From a virus: a stretch of DNA of 64,000 bases. The position numbers and the translations under genes are program-made. How positions within the stretch are numbered: the first letter of the stretch is position 1; each line of letters begins with the position of its first letter. Under the pieces are notes generated by a model. The model made no database searches. It was not told the origin of the DNA and worked only from the letters and a program-made list of their open reading frames with translations. The stretch spans positions 1-64,000 of IMG/VR virus record IMGVR_UViG_3300010883_024574; one strand, given 5' to 3'. This document shows, piece by piece, positions 2,436 to 42,669 of the stretch.

Positions 2436-2810
2436 ATGAAGATACTCGTAAATAAACTTTTGCCATTACTATTATTTATCGGATGCGGATACGGCAAGAT
2501 TTATAAAGATCCTGGCAAGGTTTATGAAAAGGGTTTCAAAGCTCTTTCTGAAAGCCCCTGTATAGATGGGACTATCGTAAATATATACGAAGCAGGGTGT
2601 GAAGTGTTCTATTGGGGAGTTGATCCAAATGGCATTATTTTAAAGATGCGCTGTGCTTATGCTCCAAAGGACAGCCTGTGGACTAAGTCAACCTTTTATG
2701 CGGTTCCTAATAATCATTCTATTATTCATTCTAATTGGTTTTTATTTTGTGAGGATAGGCAAGTTAGCCTATACTCTGTCTCGCAAGGAGCTGAGCTAAA
2801 CAATGAATGA
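2436..2810 (+). CDS. Putative lipoprotein, 124 aa
   Basis: The N-terminus is a short lipoprotein signal: basic start (MKILVNK), hydrophobic core (LLPLLLF) and the lipobox LFIGC with Cys17. The mature part contains further Cys residues (PCIDG, AGCEVFYWG, MRCAYAP, LFCEDR) that could form disulphides after export. Phage lipoproteins often act in superinfection exclusion or in spanin-type lysis, but nothing here decides the role. It is fused end to end with its neighbours (0-base gap upstream, 8-base overlap downstream). Confidence 0.7.
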   Translation: MKILVNKLLPLLLFIGCGYGKIYKDPGKVYEKGFKALSESPCIDGTIVNIYEAGCEVFYWGVDPNGIILKMRCAYAPKDSLWTKSTFYAVPNNHSIIHSNWFLFCEDRQVSLYSVSQGAELNNE

Positions 2811-3833: not shown

Positions 3834-4901
3834 ATGATTAAGACTATTGTATGCGACAAAGCAGATTGGCTGGTTAGGTTTATCCTGCCTTCTGATGAAC
3901 TGTTAAAGCTGAATCCAATTATCGCCGGAGGCTCTATGCTGTCAGTGTATCGCGCCATAAGGCTGCATGACACACCTGACAAGTGGGAGGGGCTAAGACG
4001 GGTTTTAGAGCGCAATCCAGCCAAGGCCAAGCTTGATAAGTTTGGCGACATTGATATTTGGTTTAATAAAGATAATCCAATTCATAATGATGGTCACGAA
4101 TACAACTGGTTAATGTCTGACTTAGAAGGTGTGGGAATAGTCGCCAAGGCAGTCGGCCCACTCAGCGACACACCGGGCCTTCTGCCCGGAAATAAGTTAG
4201 GGCTTTATAGGCTAAACAGAGTTAGTCGTTGGGCAAATTCATTCCTTTGTAACACCACCAAGGAGAGCAAGCCTTTGTCTAAAGAGATTCAGTTTATAAA
4301 GAAAGAGTTTTCCTCAGTAAGAAAGCTTCTAGAATCATTTGATTTTATAAACTGTTCTGTAGCATATTTTGATGGAAAGCTTTATTATGATGACAGAATT
4401 GATGAAGCTTTTTCGTCTTTTGAATTAAGATTAAACAACTCAAGTGTATATAGTAAAGACTCCGTTGCTATGAAGGTGTTTAATGCTCTAAGGGCATTTA
4501 AGTATGTTAACAGATATAGCCTTGATTTTTGCGAGCCTCTAACTGAACATATTTTTAAGCTGTATGTTGACTCAAAAGATATAGATTATGATGCTTATAA
4601 AGCTCATGTAATTGAGTTGGAAGAGCATTATGGCAAAACTATTTCTTCTGTAAATACATTAAAAGATATGGTTACTAGCTTTCATGGTACTTTTTTAAAG
4701 TTTTCAAAGATGAAGTATTTTAAAAAAGAATATTCTCTTTTCCTGGTAGACAAAGAACACTTGTTTCCCGGCTTGAAAAAGCTAATAGGGGGAGACAGTC
4801 TGGCTATCAGCAATGAAATCAAACCAAACTATTACAACGCTAACATCAAATGTTATCTAAAGTCCCCTATTAAATTCAAGAGTCAGTTCAAAGTCATTTG
4901 A
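3834..4901 (+). CDS. Nucleotidyltransferase-fold protein, 355 aa
   Basis: The N-terminal ~110 residues have the polymerase-beta-type nucleotidyltransferase signature: IIAGGSML (G32-G33-S34) followed by GDIDIWF with D72 and D74 as probable metal ligands. This core transfers NMP groups to tRNA, protein or small molecules. The C-terminal two thirds is helical and unassigned. Comparable GGS/DxDxxF proteins occur in large T4-like phages without known substrate. Two bases separate its stop from the GTG start of the GG-leader peptide gene, so co-transcription is likely; a modification role toward neighbours is speculation. Confidence 0.7.
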   Translation: MIKTIVCDKADWLVRFILPSDELLKLNPIIAGGSMLSVYRAIRLHDTPDKWEGLRRVLERNPAKAKLDKFGDIDIWFNKDNPIHNDGHEYNWLMSDLEGVGIVAKAVGPLSDTPGLLPGNKLGLYRLNRVSRWANSFLCNTTKESKPLSKEIQFIKKEFSSVRKLLESFDFINCSVAYFDGKLYYDDRIDEAFSSFELRLNNSSVYSKDSVAMKVFNALRAFKYVNRYSLDFCEPLTEHIFKLYVDSKDIDYDAYKAHVIELEEHYGKTISSVNTLKDMVTSFHGTFLKFSKMKYFKKEYSLFLVDKEHLFPGLKKLIGGDSLAISNEIKPNYYNANIKCYLKSPIKFKSQFKVI

Positions 4902-4902
4902 A

Positions 4903-5103
4903 GTGACCAATCACAAAATGAAGTCCTTAAAAAAGATAGAAAAGCTTGAAGAAAAAAATAGTATTTTAAAGGATCACGCCCGTTCAGAGCTAACAGATGA
5001 AGAGCTTGAAACGGTTATAGGCGGCATGTCAAAAGGGGCATACGATAGGTATGTAATCAAAATTATTAATGAGCATAATTCTTTAAAAATTGGTAATGAA
5101 TAA
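4903..5103 (+). CDS. Small peptide with double-glycine-type RiPP/bacteriocin leader, 66 aa
   Basis: A charged helical N-terminus leads to ELTDEELETVIGG, an almost ideal match to the leader end of nitrile-hydratase/Nif11-type RiPP precursors and GG-bacteriocins (L-S/T-D-E-E-L-x-x-V-x-G-G). A 25-residue putative core, MSKGAYDRYVIKIIN onward, follows. Known precursors of this kind are modified and then cut after GG by C39 peptidase-transporters; no such transporter, YcaO or Lan enzyme is visible in the window. GTG 4903 gives the listed length; ATG 4918 would remove five residues. Neither has a good ribosome site, suggesting coupling to the upstream gene. The diiron gene starts 12 bases downstream. 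Confidence 0.65.
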   Translation: MTNHKMKSLKKIEKLEEKNSILKDHARSELTDEELETVIGGMSKGAYDRYVIKIINEHNSLKIGNE

Positions 5104-5115
5104 CCATATAGAGCA

Positions 5116-6000
5116 ATGAAGAACCTATTACCTTATGAAATATTATCTACTGAAAGTTCTATTAACAATAGGACTTTAGAAAACCTTTATCATAAAGGAC
5201 AGTCTAATATTTGGGATGGAAAAGAAGTTCTATCCTCTTTGATTAATGAGTATGGAGAGACTACTTTATCAAAAGATCAAGTTAAATCAATAGAAAATAT
5301 CTTCTCCGTTATTTTCTGGGGAGAGTATGCCGCATGGAACATATCTTCTGAGCTTGCATTAAAACTTGAGTCTTTTGAGGCTAAAATGGCAGCTACATCA
5401 CAAGCTCATGATGAGGCCAGACACTTCTATGTCATGCGAGATTACCTAAATTACATAGGAGTTGAGCCAAAGCCCTTACCTCGTAACGCCGCAAGAGCAT
5501 TAAATTTTGTGCTGAATACTGATAATTTGGCAAAAAAGCTATTAGGTATGCAGCTAATGGTTGAACCAATAGCTATAACTATTTTCAAACTTGTAATGCA
5601 GAGCAAGATTGACCCTGTATTGTGTAATTTGCTAAAGTTATATGAAATAGACGAGGCGCGACATATTGCGTTGGGAGTCAAATACCTCCCCTCTTTAATA
5701 AAGAATATGAATTATTATGAGGTTATAAACTTGTTTGTTTGGCAGTTACGTCTGATGCTTATCGAGGTTGATGGGTTGAAGGAACTTCAAGGGGATTTTG
5801 AAAACTTAGGCTTCAATATTGACGAAGTATATGCGTTAGCTGAAAACAAGCAATTAGAAGCTGCAAGACTCATGAGTGATGAACTTGGATTGAAATATCC
5901 GCCTTGGGTAATTATGAAAAATGTTGTAAAGATAAAAAAAAATCTAAAGCTTTCTGATAATTTATTCATATCTAATATATTAAATTACATTAATTCATAG
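5116..6000 (+). CDS. R2/ferritin-like diiron oxygenase-type protein, 294 aa
   Basis: All six ligands of a ferritin-like dinuclear iron site are present in two identical spacings: E70, E100 and H103 (HDEARHF) and E150, E180 and H183 (IDEARHI), each first Glu 30 residues before its ExxH. The N-terminal LYHKGQSNIWDGKEVL resembles the 'LYeKgk..qWda' opening of bacterial ferritin-like domain proteins related to ribonucleotide reductase R2 and AurF-type N-oxygenases. These activate O2 to hydroxylate or oxidise a substrate. The substrate is unknown; the flanking GG-leader peptide and Fe-S carrier make peptide modification or iron handling possible. Confidence 0.8.
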   Translation: MKNLLPYEILSTESSINNRTLENLYHKGQSNIWDGKEVLSSLINEYGETTLSKDQVKSIENIFSVIFWGEYAAWNISSELALKLESFEAKMAATSQAHDEARHFYVMRDYLNYIGVEPKPLPRNAARALNFVLNTDNLAKKLLGMQLMVEPIAITIFKLVMQSKIDPVLCNLLKLYEIDEARHIALGVKYLPSLIKNMNYYEVINLFVWQLRLMLIEVDGLKELQGDFENLGFNIDEVYALAENKQLEAARLMSDELGLKYPPWVIMKNVVKIKKNLKLSDNLFISNILNYINS

Positions 6001-6009
6001 GAGTATTAG

Positions 6010-6336
6010 ATGGCAATTACAATGACCGATCTTGCTATAGACAGGATTCAAGATTTAATGAAGAAAACACAGTGTGAAGACTCCTATCTAAGAATAGGGT
6101 TAAAAAGTGGGGGATGCTCTGGCTTGTCTTATCATTTTGATTTTACAAAAGAAGCGGAAGAATTTGATAAAGTATTTGAGTTTGAAGCAGTAAAGGTTTG
6201 TATTGATAAAAAATCTTATTTATTTTTAAATGGAATGGAGATTGACTATGAAGAAACTCCTTTTAAATCTGGTATAATGTTAAATGTTCCCAGCGTAACA
6301 AGAACCTGTGGTTGCGGAGAGTCTGTAACCTTTTAG
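6010..6336 (+). CDS. A-type Fe-S cluster carrier (HesB/IscA/ErpA family), 108 aa
   Basis: Full-length A-type carrier with the three invariant cysteines: C36 in GGCSGLSY and C100/C102 in CGCGESV. Such proteins bind Fe-S clusters or iron and deliver them to target apoproteins. Related genes are known auxiliary genes of marine T4-like phages. Here it sits 9 bases after the diiron protein, so it may supply iron to it or clusters to the Cas4-like nuclease encoded at 60368. The TAGGAGTATTAG leader supports ATG 6010. Confidence 0.92.
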   Translation: MAITMTDLAIDRIQDLMKKTQCEDSYLRIGLKSGGCSGLSYHFDFTKEAEEFDKVFEFEAVKVCIDKKSYLFLNGMEIDYEETPFKSGIMLNVPSVTRTCGCGESVTF

Positions 6337-6827: not shown

Positions 6828-7178
6828 ATGAAATTAAACAGTATTCGTATTTCTACAGCCCTTGGTATAGTTGGGCAAAATGGAATTTTTTCAAATCAAG
6901 GTTTCAAATCTGGTGATACAGTCCTGTCTCTAACAGGAGAAGTGTCGCCTAACCCTACCCGTACCTCTATAAAGGTTGCCGAGAAAGAACATATTGAGGA
7001 TAGTGTTGGAAACTTTATTAATCATAACTGCAATCCTTCTTGCAAGATTGATGGAATCAAAGTTATTGCTCTAAAAAATATAAAAAATGGAGAAGAAATA
7101 ACTTTTGACTATTCTAAAAATGAAGATAAATTAGCAAACCCCTTTATATGCTCCTGCTGTAACAGGCTTGTTTCTTAA
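6828..7178 (+). CDS. Minimal SET-domain protein (putative protein lysine methyltransferase), 116 aa
   Basis: SET hallmarks are clear: GQNGIFS near residues 16-22 for SAM binding, the pseudoknot motif NHNCNP (65-70) and GEEITFDY (88-95). A post-SET-like Cys group (C108, C110, C111) with C68 could bind zinc. SET enzymes methylate lysines using S-adenosylmethionine. At 116 residues it lacks pre-SET and other domains and is about the size of the chlorovirus vSET histone methyltransferase. The phage also encodes an HU protein (45252), a possible but untested target. One base separates it from the dCMP deaminase stop; no strong ribosome site. Confidence 0.88.
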   Translation: MKLNSIRISTALGIVGQNGIFSNQGFKSGDTVLSLTGEVSPNPTRTSIKVAEKEHIEDSVGNFINHNCNPSCKIDGIKVIALKNIKNGEEITFDYSKNEDKLANPFICSCCNRLVS

Positions 7179-7190
7179 CACGGAGAAAAA

Positions 7191-8834
7191 ATGTGCGGAT
7201 TTGTAACCTATCTTGGCTCTAAATATAGTAGAAAAGACTTAGAGCCTCATGTTAACAAGATTCAATATCGGGGGCCAGATGGCTCTACATATAAAAAAGT
7301 ATCTTCAAATATTTCCTTCTTCTTTCATAGGCTTGCAATAATTGATGCATCTGAATCTGGAGATCAACCATTATATCTTCCAGAGGATTTGAATATTTCC
7401 ATTATTTGTAACGGAGAGATTTATAATTATAAAGAATTAATTTCAAAATATAACTTTAAAACAAACTCTGGATCTGATTGCGAAGTTATTTTGCATTTAT
7501 ATAAAAAGTTTGGTATAGAGAAAACTCTCAATATGTTAGATGGAGTATTCGCCTTTACCTTGTATGATGGAAATAAGGATATACTATATGCAGCAAGAGA
7601 TCCTTTCGGAGTCAGACCAGCCTTCTTTGGAGAGACCTATGATGGTGAGTTCATGTTGTCATCAGAAGCAAAGGCTATAAGCGATCTTTGTGATCTTATA
7701 TATCCATTTCCTCCCGGAACATGGTGGTCATCAGACGAGCCAAATGTGTTTTTATCATATCACTCTATCCTAAACATGAAAGAAAAGGCCTCATCAGAAG
7801 AAGAGATATGCAAAAACATACGACGAAGCTTAGTCGCAGCTGTTGAAAAAAGATTAATGTCGGAAAGAGAAATAGGATGCTTATTATCAGGAGGCTTAGA
7901 CTCAAGCCTTATAGCCGCCTTGGTGTCTCATATGCTAAAGGGCTATAGACTGATAGACGATGAGTGGAAATTATTTGAAGATCTGAAGTGTTCAACTCTT
8001 ATCAAAACCTTTGGCATAGGGATGAGCGGAAGCCCAGACCTAAAGTATGCAAAAAAAGTTGCCAAGTGGATTGGCAGTGACCATAATGAGGTCAGGTTAA
8101 CAAAATTAGATTTTTTAAATGCTATAGACGAAGTTATATATAAAATCGAATCATATGACACCACTACCGTCAGAGCCAGCATTGGAAACTATCTTGTATC
8201 AAAGTATATAAAGGAAAATACAGATTGTAAAGTCATTTTTAATGGAGACGGAAGCGATGAAGTATGCTGTGGATATGTTTACAATGCAAACGCTCCAACT
8301 CCAGGCGAATTACAATTAGAATCTCTTAGACTATTAGATGAAATTTATATGTTTGATGTACTAAGATCAGATAGAAGCATAAGCTCTAATGGGCTGGAGG
8401 CAAGAACACCTTTTCTAGACAAAAGCTTCGTCAGCCTATACTTATCTATACCTCCAGCTATGAAGACTTTTGATAAAACAAATAAGATTGAAAAATATTT
8501 GCTAAGAAAAGCTTTCGAGAAAGATAATTTATTGCCGCCAGAAGTTCTTTGGAGACATAAGTGTGCCTTTTCAGATGGAGTAAGCAGTATAAAAAATTCT
8601 TGGCACAAATCTATTAAGGAGTTTGTGGACAACATCGTAACTGATGATGAGTTCTGTAAGGCTTCGGAAGACATTAATCATTGTAAGCCTTTACTCAAAG
8701 AAAGTTATTATTATAGAAAGATCTTTAACAACTTGTTTCCTGGGCAGCATCATTTGATTGCTCATTTTTGGATGCCAAAGTGGACAGATGCTATAGACCC
8801 CTCTGCTCGCGAGCTTGGAGGCTATAAAGAATGA
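7191..8834 (+). CDS. asnB: Asparagine synthetase, glutamine-hydrolysing, 547 aa
   Basis: Both domains are complete. The N-terminal class II glutaminase has Cys2 (MCGFVTYLG), YRGPDGS (26-32) and a GEIYNY segment; the C-terminal ATP-pyrophosphatase domain has the PP-loop SGGLDSS (about 233-239) and the later GDGSDEVCCGY motif. It makes asparagine from aspartate, glutamine and ATP. Lasso-peptide cyclases are relatives of this family but lack the glutaminase, so full AsnB is the better call. An ACGGAGAAAA ribosome site precedes ATG 7191. Glutamine could come from the glutamine synthetase at 15787. Confidence 0.9.
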   Translation: MCGFVTYLGSKYSRKDLEPHVNKIQYRGPDGSTYKKVSSNISFFFHRLAIIDASESGDQPLYLPEDLNISIICNGEIYNYKELISKYNFKTNSGSDCEVILHLYKKFGIEKTLNMLDGVFAFTLYDGNKDILYAARDPFGVRPAFFGETYDGEFMLSSEAKAISDLCDLIYPFPPGTWWSSDEPNVFLSYHSILNMKEKASSEEEICKNIRRSLVAAVEKRLMSEREIGCLLSGGLDSSLIAALVSHMLKGYRLIDDEWKLFEDLKCSTLIKTFGIGMSGSPDLKYAKKVAKWIGSDHNEVRLTKLDFLNAIDEVIYKIESYDTTTVRASIGNYLVSKYIKENTDCKVIFNGDGSDEVCCGYVYNANAPTPGELQLESLRLLDEIYMFDVLRSDRSISSNGLEARTPFLDKSFVSLYLSIPPAMKTFDKTNKIEKYLLRKAFEKDNLLPPEVLWRHKCAFSDGVSSIKNSWHKSIKEFVDNIVTDDEFCKASEDINHCKPLLKESYYYRKIFNNLFPGQHHLIAHFWMPKWTDAIDPSARELGGYKE

Positions 8835-20752: not shown

Positions 20753-22357
20753 ATGAGTAAAGAAGTTAAATTTGGTGCAGAGGCTAGATGCGGACTGCAA
20801 GATGGTCTTGATACTTTGGCAAATGCTGTCAAAGCAACCCTGGGTCCGAAAGGACGTAATGCAGCTATAGAAAGGGCATATGGCCCTCCGCTAATAACGA
20901 AGGACGGGGTGACTGTAGCTAGAGCTATAACCTTGGGCGATAGTGTTAATAATATGGGAGCAGAACTTGTAAAGAGTGTTGCTTCCTCTACCAACTCAGC
21001 CGCAGGTGACGGCACAACAACCGCAACAGTTTTGGCCCAAGCTATCTATACGGAAGGTGCAAAGATGGTGGCGGCAGGTCATAATCCTGTTTTAATCAAG
21101 AGAGGTATTGATAAGGCAGTTACGGTTGTTGTGGCTAAGCTTAAAGATATTAGCGTCCCCGTCTCTGATGATGAAACTGTTAAAAATGTTGCGATCATAT
21201 CGGCAAACAATGATGTAGAGTTGGGAGGCTTAATAGGGGAGGTGGTATCGGCAGTAGGGGATGATGGTATGATCTCTGTAGAAGAAGCCACTGGAGCGGA
21301 AACCTCTGTAGCCTATACGGAAGGCATAACCTTTGATCGAGGGTGGATCACTCCCACCTTTGCTACGAATCTGGAGAGGTTAACGGTTGAGTTTGAAAAT
21401 CCTTTCATATTAGTTTATGACGGCAGAATTTCATCTACATATGAAATAATGCCAATCCTTGAAGCTGTATCCGAACATAATAAGCCTTTGCTTATTATAT
21501 CTCAAACAACTGAGTCAGAAGCTCTGCAAACATTAATTTTAAATAAAGCTCGTGGTACGCTATCATCCTGTGCCGTTAGAGCGCCGGGGTTTGGAAGTAT
21601 CAGAAGAGACATGCTTGGAGATATTGCAACCGTTTGTAATGCAGTCTTGCTTACAGATGAGACCGGAAACCCTTTGCGAGATATAACTTTGAATGAACTA
21701 GGTACAGCGAGAAGGGTTATCATAAATAGAAATTCTACGACAATAGTTGATGGAGCGGGAACGTCGGAAGATATTATGTGCAGAGCAGATACTATAAGAG
21801 AACAGCTAGGTCAAGATCTGGAGTCTTATGAGTACGCTTCTTTGAAGCAGCGACTATCATCGCTAGCTGGATCTATAGCTATCCTTAAGGTTGGTGGTAT
21901 TTCTGAGTCTGAAATGAAAGAGAGAAAAGATCGTGTAGAAGATGCTATTAACGCAGTTAAGGCTGCAATAGAAGAAGGCATTGTTCCCGGAGGCGGGGCC
22001 GCTCTGTTGCATTGTGAATCAGACTTGCAAGACTTAAAAGAAAGCGAGGGGTTGATTACAGAAGAATTAGTTGGAGTCGATGTAATAGCGAGGGCAATAC
22101 GAGAGCCTTTTATTCAGATTCTCGTAAATGCTGGAATTGAACATCATTCTTATATGGAAAAGATTATCGGATCTAACAAAATGTTTAGCGGATTTGACGC
22201 TCTCAATGGCAAGCCTTCAAATGACATGTTGAAGGACGGCATTATTGACCCGGTGAAGGTTGTTAGGACGGCTATTGAAAATGCTGCCTCTGCAAGTGGT
22301 ACGCTTTTAACCACAGAGGTTGTAATTTATGAGTCGAATCAAACCGATGTAGATTAA
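20753..22357 (+). CDS. groEL: GroEL-type chaperonin, 534 aa
   Basis: Group I chaperonin over its whole length: ATP site TLGPKGRNA and DGVTVARAI, GDGTTTATVLAQ, catalytic-Asp helix VEDAINAVKAAIEEG and PGGGAALL. It lacks the C-terminal Gly-Gly-Met tail. It folds proteins inside a ring cavity with ATP; phage-encoded chaperonins in large phages such as EL can work without a phage GroES, and no groES is visible within this window. Probable clients are capsid, fibre or captured metabolic enzymes. Own promoter-like sequence; a conserved leader element follows immediately. Confidence 0.95.
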   Translation: MSKEVKFGAEARCGLQDGLDTLANAVKATLGPKGRNAAIERAYGPPLITKDGVTVARAITLGDSVNNMGAELVKSVASSTNSAAGDGTTTATVLAQAIYTEGAKMVAAGHNPVLIKRGIDKAVTVVVAKLKDISVPVSDDETVKNVAIISANNDVELGGLIGEVVSAVGDDGMISVEEATGAETSVAYTEGITFDRGWITPTFATNLERLTVEFENPFILVYDGRISSTYEIMPILEAVSEHNKPLLIISQTTESEALQTLILNKARGTLSSCAVRAPGFGSIRRDMLGDIATVCNAVLLTDETGNPLRDITLNELGTARRVIINRNSTTIVDGAGTSEDIMCRADTIREQLGQDLESYEYASLKQRLSSLAGSIAILKVGGISESEMKERKDRVEDAINAVKAAIEEGIVPGGGAALLHCESDLQDLKESEGLITEELVGVDVIARAIREPFIQILVNAGIEHHSYMEKIIGSNKMFSGFDALNGKPSNDMLKDGIIDPVKVVRTAIENAASASGTLLTTEVVIYESNQTDVD

Positions 22358-28865: not shown

Positions 28866-30236
28866 ATGCAAAAAACACTTCAAGAAAGCCTCATTGGGCT
28901 GGCAAACCATTTAGATGATAAAGGTTACTTAAAACTTGCAGATCAAGTTGATTCCATTGTAAAGATGGCTCAGACTACCGATGATGATGATTCGGCAACC
29001 GATGATGATGATTCGGCAACAGATCCTAATGCAGCAGCAGCAACAGATCCTAATGCAGCAGCAGCAACAGATCCTAATGCAGCAACAGATCCTAATGCAG
29101 CAGCAGATCCTAATGCAGCAGCAGATCCTAATGCAGCAGCAGATCCTAATGCAGCAGCAGATCCTAATGCAGCAACAGCAACAGATCCTAATGCAGCAAC
29201 AGATCCTAATGCAGCAACAGATCCTAATGCAGCAACAGATCCTAATGCAGCAGCAGCAACAACAGATCCTAATGCAGGTACAGGGTCCGCACCAACAATG
29301 ACCGCAGAGAACTTTCATGAAGCAGGCCAGGGTTATGCAGATACTTATTCAGAGCAATTGGTTGCAGCCAATGGAAAATGGGACTTTGTTCTCAAGGGAT
29401 ATGGCAACAGGGATTGGTTAGTAAAAGGGCCTAATGAAGTTTGGCTCTATTCTCCAGGTATGTCAGGCACACCATCTAAGTTTACTGCTACTTATGCAAA
29501 GAGATATGCAAAACGACAGTTTGAGGGCAATCCGGATAAAGCGCCATTAAATTGGGATCAGATGGTGAAAAACCTAAACAGTCATACAGACAATGTTAAA
29601 GACGAAGGCCCTGGCTCTATAGTTTTTCAGGCTAGAGAGCCTCTTGCAGACGAGACAGATCCGGCTGGAAACCCGTGGGGTGAGGACGCTCAACAGGCAA
29701 GAGAAACAGCGTCTAGAGATTCTCATCAGACTGATGCAGAGAAGGCTATTGCAAGAAGTCAAGCCCCAGCAGAAGAGGCAGATGAAACAGCAGCCGCAGC
29801 CGCCACAGCAGCGCCAGACGGTGAAGCATTGACTCGCAGCTTAAAAGCAGAGAACCAAAGAGCTTTTAGAACTGCTGCAAATAATATTCGCAGAGGACAG
29901 GTGTGGACCCAACGGAAGGCGATTGGCAAAGTAACTTTGCCTCACAATAGTCCTGAAAAACGAAACGCAAAGGCAAGAGAGATATTATTATCAGCTGTTA
30001 ACGAATTACCAGATGTTACAGACAAAGGTGCTGCGGTAGAAAGCATGTTTAACTATCTCGAAACCTGGCTGAGAGACCCCAATGCTGAAGCCGAAGTAGC
30101 TGAAGCACTCGACGGGTTACTTTCAGAGGACGGGTTACTTTCAGATGCAGAGTATCAAGGTTATAGAATAGAAAAGACAGCAGAAAAGCTTTCACAATTA
30201 TTTAGCGTTCAAGACATACCATCCGTAAGGAGGTAA
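28866..30236 (+). CDS. Hairpin-module protein with DPNAA tandem repeats, 456 aa
   Basis: Residues 1-38 hold the hairpin module (SLIGLANHLDDKGYLKLADQ, VDSIVKMAQ), closely similar to that inside the preceding zincin. A spacer of DDDDSAT units and 13 DPNA(A) repeats (about residues 39-137) follows, then a globular part (YADTYSEQLVAANGKWDFVL, GYGNRDWLVKGPNEVWLYSP), a charged Ala-rich stretch and a helical C-terminus with a duplicated DGLLS unit. The repeat looks like a disordered or stalk linker. Probable structural or scaffold-like role by context; not recognised otherwise. Confidence 0.65.
   Translation: MQKTLQESLIGLANHLDDKGYLKLADQVDSIVKMAQTTDDDDSATDDDDSATDPNAAAATDPNAAAATDPNAATDPNAAADPNAAADPNAAADPNAAADPNAATATDPNAATDPNAATDPNAATDPNAAAATTDPNAGTGSAPTMTAENFHEAGQGYADTYSEQLVAANGKWDFVLKGYGNRDWLVKGPNEVWLYSPGMSGTPSKFTATYAKRYAKRQFEGNPDKAPLNWDQMVKNLNSHTDNVKDEGPGSIVFQAREPLADETDPAGNPWGEDAQQARETASRDSHQTDAEKAIARSQAPAEEADETAAAAATAAPDGEALTRSLKAENQRAFRTAANNIRRGQVWTQRKAIGKVTLPHNSPEKRNAKAREILLSAVNELPDVTDKGAAVESMFNYLETWLRDPNAEAEVAEALDGLLSEDGLLSDAEYQGYRIEKTAEKLSQLFSVQDIPSVRR
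28980..29278 (+). repeat. In-frame tandem repeat encoding DDDDSAT and DPNAA units
   Basis: Two 21-base units for DDDDSAT are followed by 13 units of a 12-18-base repeat built on GATCCTAATGCA plus GCA/ACA codons. Near-identical DNA between units implies recent expansion by slippage or recombination; copy number probably varies between strains. Not a CRISPR array: no unique spacers, and the frame is maintained. Confidence 0.9.
30111..30146 (+). repeat. 18-bp tandem duplication
   Basis: Two copies of GACGGGTTACTTTCAGAK encode DGLLSEDGLLSD near the C-terminus of the repeat protein. Confidence 0.85.
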
Positions 30237-41466: not shown

Positions 41467-42669
41467 GTGATTCATGTAATATCTAAAACACATAGTAGAC
41501 TTGCAACTATAATAGTTGCTTTTGATGCAGGTGCAAGGTCTGAGTTAACCGGAGAGTATAATTCTGGTATTGCTCATATGCTTGAACATTCTTTATTTAA
41601 GGGCACAGAGAAAAGAAATAGTGTACAGATACAAAGGGAGATAGCATTTCTTGGCGGGCACTCAAATGCTTTTACTTCGCACGAAACTGTTGCTTATTAT
41701 ATAAGTGTCCCCTATGAAAACCTAGAGCCATGTATGGAGATTCTTTCTGATATGGTTTTCAATCCTATATTTCCAGAGGATGAGTTCCTAAAGGAAAGAG
41801 AAGTCGTTAAAGAGGAAGAGGTTTCTTCAAATGATGATCCATCAATGTATATATGGAGACAGTTTTCAGACGAATTCTTTGATAATTATTTAGCACTACC
41901 TGTGCTTGGAACACAAGATAGTATTTCAAAGTTTACAAACGATGAAGTTAAAAGGTTCCATTCTCAATTTTGCCAAAGAAAGGATGCTATAGTCTCAGTC
42001 TGTAGTATCTTGAAAAAGAAAGATATAAAAAATCTTTTAAATAAATATTTTGGAAAGCAAAATGGGAAAATAAAAAGATCTTATAAGTTTGATGATTCAA
42101 ACTATTTAGACTCTAGATACATAGAGCTTTTTAAGGGAGGTCTTGAGCACGCCTATGTTTGGCTGGGTATGCCCGCTGACAGCATGGGTTCAAAGTGGGA
42201 TGGTGCAATCCAGATACTTATGACTATCCTTGGCAGGGGAATGGATTGTAGGCTGTTTACAGAGGTGAGAGAGAAGCTAGGCTTGGTGTATGGCATATCT
42301 GCAAATTATACTGATTGGCAGACAGGCGGATTGACCATGATAGAATTCTCCACAAGAGAGGATAATATAGCAGAAGCACTTGATACTGTTGACAAGGAGC
42401 TGGAAGTGATTAAAACATATATGCCTACCGAGGAAGAAGTACAGAGAGCGAAGAATAAGATAAGATCATCTTTTTATGCAGCTATGGAAGATAGCTATAG
42501 CATTGCTTATTGGGAAACCAAAAGAAGGCTGTTTAACATACCGGAAATAGATGAGTATATGAAAAAGATTGATGCCGTAACAAGGCAAGATGTTCTTGAG
42601 GCAGCCAATCGAGTCTTTGATACAGATAAGCAATTGCTGACGGTATGCAGAGGACCCGATGATGGCTGA
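41467..42669 (+). CDS. M16-family zinc peptidase (insulinase/MPP-like), 400 aa
   Basis: Inverted zinc motif HMLEH (H37, E40, H41) in GIAHMLEHSLFKGTEKR, the distal Glu in EREVVKEEE, and the C-terminal-half motif FTEVREKLGLVYGISANY with the substrate-binding Arg/Tyr pair. Both M16 halves are present and complete. Cellular relatives degrade or process peptides (mitochondrial processing peptidase, PqqF/PqqL, RiPP proteases). In a phage the role is unknown; processing of the GG-leader peptide is conceivable but unsupported. GTG start preceded by AAGGAG. Confidence 0.88.
   Translation: MIHVISKTHSRLATIIVAFDAGARSELTGEYNSGIAHMLEHSLFKGTEKRNSVQIQREIAFLGGHSNAFTSHETVAYYISVPYENLEPCMEILSDMVFNPIFPEDEFLKEREVVKEEEVSSNDDPSMYIWRQFSDEFFDNYLALPVLGTQDSISKFTNDEVKRFHSQFCQRKDAIVSVCSILKKKDIKNLLNKYFGKQNGKIKRSYKFDDSNYLDSRYIELFKGGLEHAYVWLGMPADSMGSKWDGAIQILMTILGRGMDCRLFTEVREKLGLVYGISANYTDWQTGGLTMIEFSTREDNIAEALDTVDKELEVIKTYMPTEEEVQRAKNKIRSSFYAAMEDSYSIAYWETKRRLFNIPEIDEYMKKIDAVTRQDVLEAANRVFDTDKQLLTVCRGPDDG

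What the first reader, a model, noticed from the sequence alone, without database searches (positions are those of the whole stretch)
4903..6000. GG-leader, RiPP-precursor-like peptide next to an R2/ferritin-like diiron enzyme in a phage
Seen: ELTDEELETVIGG followed by a 25-residue core, 12 bases before a diiron protein with all six metal ligands (E70, E100, H103, E150, E180, H183) and then an Fe-S/iron carrier. Known: such leaders mark nitrile-hydratase/Nif11-type RiPP precursors and GG-bacteriocins; diiron enzymes oxidise peptides in some pathways. Inference: a phage-encoded modified peptide, for killing competitors, exclusion or host control. Missing: YcaO, LanM, radical SAM or C39 transporter in this window.
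Basis: partly seen in the sequence, partly recalled or inferred. Interest (0 to 1): 0.78.

Follow-up and report, generated by a model that had tools for sequence, protein, structure and literature searches.

The report
Phage-encoded double-glycine-leader peptide family
A large uncultured phage carries a short, conserved gene whose start looks exactly like the cut-off tag that bacteria put on secreted peptides such as bacteriocins and signals; the same small gene recurs in several other giant phages beside different enzymes, so the neighbouring iron enzyme is probably not its dedicated modifier.

Summary
ORF 4903-5103 encodes a peptide with a canonical double-glycine leader (ELTDEELETVIGG), 12 bases before a diiron protein whose six ligands are invariant in 11 homologs, followed by an IscA-type protein. 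The motif passes the curated TIGR01847 cut-off. The peptide is under purifying selection and belongs to a small family that I found in about six giant-phage lineages. All members share E-L-x4-L-E-x-V-x-G-G plus an invariant Tyr and Asn (Y-x5-N) after the GG; the part before the motif varies freely in length and sequence.

The inferred pairing with the diiron enzyme is weak. Diiron genes occur without the peptide in at least seven phage lineages and in Myxococcota. A relative (L018) keeps the peptide frame although its diiron gene is deleted. A 203-kb phage record has the peptide, no detectable diiron gene, and a sulfotransferase and an FKBP overlapping it. No C39 exporter, ABC transporter, YcaO or radical-SAM gene was found in three related records.

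Best reading: a phage GG-leader peptide precursor, probably cut and exported by a host C39 transporter. Export, modification and activity are untested. The RiPP-by-diiron reading is possible but unlikely.

The parts
4903..5103 (+). Double-glycine-leader peptide gene (GTG start; alternative ATG at 4918). Leader to 5025, putative core 5026-5100.
   Evidence: ORF and sequence; TIGR01847 over cut-off; orthologs in L002, L018, L097-L101, L103, L111; purifying selection
4987..5025 (+). GG recognition motif (ELTDEELETVIGG); predicted cleavage after the second Gly (G41 of the 66-aa reading).
   Evidence: TIGR01847 match placed here; 11 of 14 motif columns invariant in three orthologs; E, L, L, E, V, G, G invariant in seven relatives
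5026..5100 (+). Putative mature core MSKGAYDRYVIKIINEHNSLKIGNE, no Cys; the second Tyr and the Asn of Y-x5-N are invariant in the family.
   Evidence: alignment A6; composition
5116..6000 (+). Ferritin-like diiron protein, 294 aa; ligands E70, E100, H103, E150, E180, H183; fold closest to cyanobacterial aldehyde-deformylating oxygenase and R2-like oxidases. Neighbour, probably not a dedicated partner.
   Evidence: (pLDDT 84.8, pTM 0.83); distribution
6010..6336 (+). IscA/HesB-type iron-sulphur carrier; found in many viral contigs independently of the peptide.
3834..4901 (+). 355-aa protein immediately upstream, conserved upstream of the peptide in L002 and L018 (54-63% identity); the GGS...DIDIWF pattern suggests a nucleotidyltransferase-like fold (inference only).
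   Evidence: no significant Pfam or PDB match
2436..2810 (+). Small lipoprotein-like gene whose family recurs just upstream of diiron genes in L004/L005 and two genes after the peptide in L097.

Best explanation
The gene encodes a precursor peptide with a double-glycine leader. The leader (to ...ELTDEELETVIGG) is the part that a C39 peptidase-containing ABC exporter recognises and removes. The roughly 25-residue core would be released outside the cell, or into the periplasm, during infection as a phage-encoded secreted peptide (signal or bacteriocin-like). Because the phage records carry no C39 or ABC exporter that I could find, the exporter would be the host's. The diiron protein and IscA are separate accessory genes of the same gene-dense region, not the peptide's dedicated maturation system. 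Shown here: the gene is real and conserved, the GG motif is its most conserved part, the core keeps an invariant Tyr and Asn, and the peptide and diiron gene are separable. Inferred: recognition, cleavage and export by a host transporter, and any outside function.
For: GG model over its curated cut-off in the window peptide, and for L002 when neighbouring residues are counted; only orthologs hit in ten phage records; over cut-off in only one of 14 control genomes. Weak best NCBIfam hits of the L002, L018 and L097 peptides are GG-leader bacteriocin families. Conservation concentrates in the motif (11/14 vs 5/46, p=3e-6), while the part before it varies from about 5 to 40 residues, as expected of a protease-recognised leader. 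About six phage lineages carry it; the L103 and L111 matches (E 1e-6, 5e-4) far exceed shuffled controls (best 0.21). Purifying selection. Separable from diiron. No exporter or RiPP enzyme in three related records.
Against: No exporter in the phage, and the host is unknown. L018 scores below the TIGR01847 cut-off. L103 gives only a sub-threshold sublancin-family hint and L111 no GG-family hit at all. The core keeps a fixed Y-x5-N pattern and is not hypervariable, which also fits a small folded helical protein. Weak or absent ribosome-binding sites at the window starts and no ATG/GTG/TTG start in L018. Core charge is only +1 and amphipathicity low, so it is not a typical pore-forming bacteriocin. 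No expression or cleavage data.
Confidence: 0.5

Rival explanations
1. A small intracellular helical protein (for example a regulator or accessory subunit). ELTDEELETV is an ordinary helix, GG a helix break, and the Y-x5-N stretch a second helix. The resemblance to export leaders is convergent.
For: Conserved pattern in the supposed core; strong purifying selection on the core in L097/L099 (pN 0.04, pS 0.38); helices predicted on both sides of the GG (low confidence); no exporter in the phage.
Against: The motif matches an export-leader model at a level that almost never occurs by chance; the part before the motif varies freely in length; relatives have weak hits to GG-leader families.
Confidence: 0.28
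2. One reading: a RiPP whose core is oxidised by the adjacent diiron enzyme and which is then cleaved after GG.
For: Immediate adjacency in the window and L002; peptide within 2.3 kb of a diiron gene in G003 and 1.7 kb in G216; in L018 the diiron gene is a remnant and the peptide lacks a canonical start, as if both were decaying; an invariant core Tyr is available for oxidation.
Against: Diiron without peptide in at least seven phage lineages and in Myxococcota loci; peptide without detectable diiron in L097-L101; the fused peptide-enzyme model places the peptide at pLDDT about 28-56, so no docking is supported (inconclusive, as the peptide had no alignment depth); no RiPP precursor family reached except the generic leader.
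Confidence: 0.1
3. A RaxX-like modified peptide: the core Tyr is sulfated (L097-L101 lineage) or otherwise modified by a transferase encoded just upstream, then exported.
For: In L097/L099 the peptide ORF overlaps the 3' end of a Sulfotransfer_2 gene (29.7 and 25.9 bits, cut-off 22). RaxX is a 60-residue precursor, Tyr-sulfated by RaxST, with a double-glycine leader removed by RaxB (PMC6637879). The invariant Tyr supplies a possible acceptor.
Against: No sulfotransferase homolog of that kind in the held window-lineage sequence; Sulfotransfer_2 enzymes may act on carbohydrates; no C39 exporter in the three records searched.
Confidence: 0.12

Closest known systems
Double-glycine-leader bacteriocin/pheromone precursors (TIGR01847; class II bacteriocins, ComC, class II microcins)
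   Same: Leader with L at -12 and -7, acidic -8, V at -4 and GG at -2/-1; short core; TIGR01847 over cut-off.
   Different: Encoded by a giant phage without its own C39 exporter or recognisable immunity gene; core weakly charged, with an invariant Tyr and Asn.
Xanthomonas RaxX-RaxST-RaxB (PMC6637879)
   Same: About 60-residue precursor with GG leader and conserved Tyr; in the L097-L101 phages it overlaps a sulfotransferase gene.
   Different: No sulfotransferase beside the window peptide, no C39 exporter, no evident core similarity; function unknown.
Nif11 / NHLP RiPP precursors (TIGR03798, TIGR03793)
   Same: The last residues of those leaders (E-L-x3-L-x-x-V-x-G-G type).
   Different: The larger leader domain is missing and curated cut-offs are far from met; no maturase found.
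R2-like ligand-binding oxidase / AurF / cyanobacterial aldehyde-deformylating oxygenase (diiron neighbour)
   Same: Four-helix ferritin-like fold, six 4Glu/2His ligands; TM-score 0.86 (by target length) to 4rc5.
   Different: About 17% identity, below every curated Pfam/NCBIfam cut-off; an uncharacterised family shared by giant phages and Myxococcota.

Membership tests
Double-glycine leader peptide (TIGR01847 bacteriocin_sig) | Leader sequence model over curated cut-off | tested here: met
   15.8 vs 15.7 bits, 17.4 bits in the six-frame scan; L002 over with neighbours; L018 14.2, below
Double-glycine leader peptide (TIGR01847 bacteriocin_sig) | Motif conserved in homologs | tested here: met
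   E, L, L, E, V, G, G invariant in seven relatives
Double-glycine leader peptide (TIGR01847 bacteriocin_sig) | Cognate C39 peptidase/ABC exporter | tested here: inconclusive
   None in the phage records G000, G001 or G002; a host exporter could not be tested because the host is unknown, and the records may be partial
Double-glycine leader peptide (TIGR01847 bacteriocin_sig) | Cleavage after GG and export | not testable with these tools
   needs experiment
Nif11 RiPP precursor (TIGR03798) | Full leader domain over cut-off | tested here: not met
   13.2 vs 32.3 bits
NHLP RiPP precursor (TIGR03793) | Full leader domain over cut-off | tested here: not met
   no hit for the window peptide; L097 12.8 vs 50.9 bits
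RiPP in general | Dedicated modifying enzyme consistently linked to the precursor | tested here: not met
   diiron and peptide dissociate both ways; no YcaO or radical SAM in three records
RaxX-type sulfated peptide | Adjacent tyrosine sulfotransferase | tested here: not met
   none beside the window peptide; Sulfotransfer_2 overlaps the homolog in L097-L101
R2-like ligand-binding oxidase (NF006198-NF006202) | Equivalog/subfamily cut-off | tested here: not met
   23 vs 194 bits
AurF (PF11583) | Pfam gathering score | tested here: not met
   25.3 vs 29.6 bits
Ferritin-like diiron superfamily | Six carboxylate/His ligands on a four-helix bundle | tested here: met

The most novel reading that the evidence does not exclude
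Giant phages carry a dedicated family of secreted peptides that use the infected cell's own C39 exporters, with tailoring enzymes that differ by lineage (sulfotransferase in one, possibly the diiron oxygenase in another) acting on the invariant core Tyr: phage-encoded, modified, exported signals or weapons.
Probability: 0.13. Interest if true: 0.8.

Novelty: new variant of a known kind. Interest (0 to 1): 0.5.

Why it matters
If the peptide is cut and exported by a host transporter, giant phages would have a route to send their own peptides out of infected cells, either to signal to other infections or to act on competitors. The family is small, conserved and simple to test with standard C39-protease assays, and one lineage places it beside a sulfotransferase, parallel to the RaxX system.

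Tried and rejected
Isolated phages: no match to diiron, either peptide or the L097 sulfotransferase in 50,697 phage records. Single-sequence peptide search of viral contigs found nothing; the profile search did. RiPP enzymes and exporters in three records: none. AsnB (7191-8834) as a RiPP enzyme was considered, because AsnB-like proteins act in lasso and nitrile RiPPs (PMC13060819); it passes the asparagine synthase B equivalog cut-off (512.6 vs 499) and is rejected as metabolic. Peptide as diiron subunit: the fused model (TAA read through) put the peptide at very low confidence, so inconclusive. Plasmid search gave only chance-level hits. A nucleotidyltransferase identity for the 355-aa upstream protein could not be shown. 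MAFFT aligned the L002 peptide to a diiron helix in one mixed alignment; treated as an artefact and left out. Papers on phage-borne GG-leader peptides or ferritin-like RiPP enzymes: none found in the open library with the terms used. A first regular expression for the GG motif was mis-specified and missed the peptide itself; corrected.

Full report
WHAT IS THERE. The window is the first 64 kb of an 86,248-base IMG/VR virus record. Its genes mark an uncultured giant-phage relative: two GroEL paralogs, glutamine synthetase, asparagine synthase, PurA, an IMPDH/GMPR-family enzyme, ThyX, an FtsK-type ATPase and an M16 peptidase. ORF 4903-5103 encodes MTNHKMKSLKKIEKLEEKNSILKDHARSELTDEELETVIGG|MSKGAYDRYVIKIINEHNSLKIGNE. 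Twelve bases later starts a 294-aa diiron protein, and then an IscA-family protein.

IS THE GG LEADER REAL. TIGR01847 (bacteriocin-type leader) is over its curated cut-off. A six-frame scan of ten phage records (about 1.2 Mb) found only three matches, all the same orthologous peptide; of 14 control genomes only one was over the cut-off. The orthologs are L002 (51% identical, directly upstream of a 79% identical diiron gene) and L018. In the three, 11 of 14 motif columns are invariant against 5 of 46 elsewhere (p=3e-6). Against L002 the gene shows pN 0.30 and pS 0.62. So the gene is real and the motif is what selection holds most tightly.

THE FAMILY IS WIDER. A profile of the three peptides found relatives in L097/L098/L100/L101 (one lineage, up to a 203-kb record) and L099: MKNTKKISKNLNIQDNELTDEQLEIVCGG|MRKETFDIYATDLINKNLFYKQKEKQ. 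An HMM of these five then found L103 (E 1e-6) and L111 (E 5e-4) among 14,639 ORFs; shuffled controls reach at best 0.21. Both lie near diiron genes, 2.3 kb and 1.7 kb away. All seven share E-L-x4-L-E-x-V-x-G-G and, after the GG, an invariant Tyr and Asn spaced Y-x5-N. The part before the motif is free in length. L097 against L099 shows strong purifying selection (pN 0.08, pS 0.37).

IS THE DIIRON ENZYME ITS PARTNER. Mostly no. With both profiles run on the same 33 phage records, both genes are present in G000, G001, G003 and G216. The diiron gene alone is present in 11 records, at least seven lineages. The peptide alone is in G002 and in five records of the L097/L099 group. These records were fetched by one or the other gene and may be fragments, so the counts are not frequencies. 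In L018 (G002) the peptide frame is open, but diiron, IscA and dCMP deaminase are gone; a frameshifted stretch resembling the diiron C-terminus remains, and the peptide has no ATG, GTG or TTG start, so both may be decaying. Close diiron homologs in Myxococcota (8 of 195 genomes at E<1e-78) have no GG peptide beside them in the stretches checked. In L097-L101 the peptide ORF instead overlaps a Sulfotransfer_2 gene and an FKBP gene. The neighbourhoods share other genes (CYTH between peptide and diiron in L111 and downstream in the window; a small lipoprotein in the window, L004, L005 and L097), so shared ancestry of a gene-dense region explains the proximity as well as function does.

WHAT THE DIIRON PROTEIN IS. 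The model is confident (pLDDT 84.8, pTM 0.83). The closest solved folds are cyanobacterial aldehyde-deformylating oxygenases (TM 0.86 by target length, 17% identity), then R2-like oxidases and RNR R2. By sequence it is below all curated cut-offs. Its substrate is unknown. A read-through fusion of peptide and enzyme left the peptide at pLDDT about 28-56, which neither supports nor excludes binding.

HOW IT MOST LIKELY WORKS (inference). The leader fits recognition by a C39 peptidase-containing ABC exporter. Neither C39 nor ABC-transporter genes were found in the three records G000-G002, so a host exporter would have to act. The core has no Cys, two Ser/Thr and charge +1, which argues against lanthipeptide or azole chemistry and against a typical cationic pore former. 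A secreted signal-like peptide is therefore slightly preferred to a bacteriocin, without direct evidence. RaxX is the nearest mechanistic parallel: a 60-residue precursor, Tyr-sulfated by RaxST, GG leader removed by RaxB (PMC6637879). Only the L097-L101 lineage has a sulfotransferase in place. The main rival is a small folded intracellular protein, because the core pattern is conserved rather than variable.

LIMITS. Records are partial and the host is unknown. Three of the seven aligned peptides belong to one phage clade and two to another. No expression or mass data exist. The mature boundaries are predictions, and the start codon in the window (GTG 4903 or ATG 4918) is undecided.

Noticed in passing
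L018:3593-3990: A related phage carries a natural deletion of most of the diiron gene, IscA and dCMP deaminase, leaving the GG-peptide frame without an ATG/GTG/TTG start (ATT after a GAGG is the only SD-like candidate) and a frameshifted stretch resembling the diiron C-terminus.
   Followed up: yes
L097:4349-5605: Sulfotransfer_2, GG peptide and FKBP isomerase form an overlapping three-gene cassette in a 203-kb phage record; parallel to raxST-raxX.
   Followed up: partly
window 41467-42669: Phage-encoded M16 zinc peptidase with HMLEH motif (PF00675, 99.6 bits); a conceivable peptide-processing protease.
   Followed up: partly
window 20753-22357 and L011:13480-15135: Two GroEL paralogs in one phage record.
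   Followed up: partly
window 2436-2810: Small lipoprotein-like family recurring beside diiron genes (L004, L005) and near the GG peptide in L097; no Pfam or PHROG match.
   Followed up: partly
L003 / L103 (contig IMGVR_UViG_3300008952_000003): Two diiron paralogs near opposite contig ends (4571-5500 and 192090-192986), and an S-adenosylmethionine-lyase-family gene upstream of the first.
   Followed up: no
window 28866-30236: 456-aa protein with a long DPNAA-type repeat.
   Followed up: no
window 6828-7178: Phage-encoded SET-domain protein (PF00856, 42.8 bits), conserved in L002 and L018.
   Followed up: no
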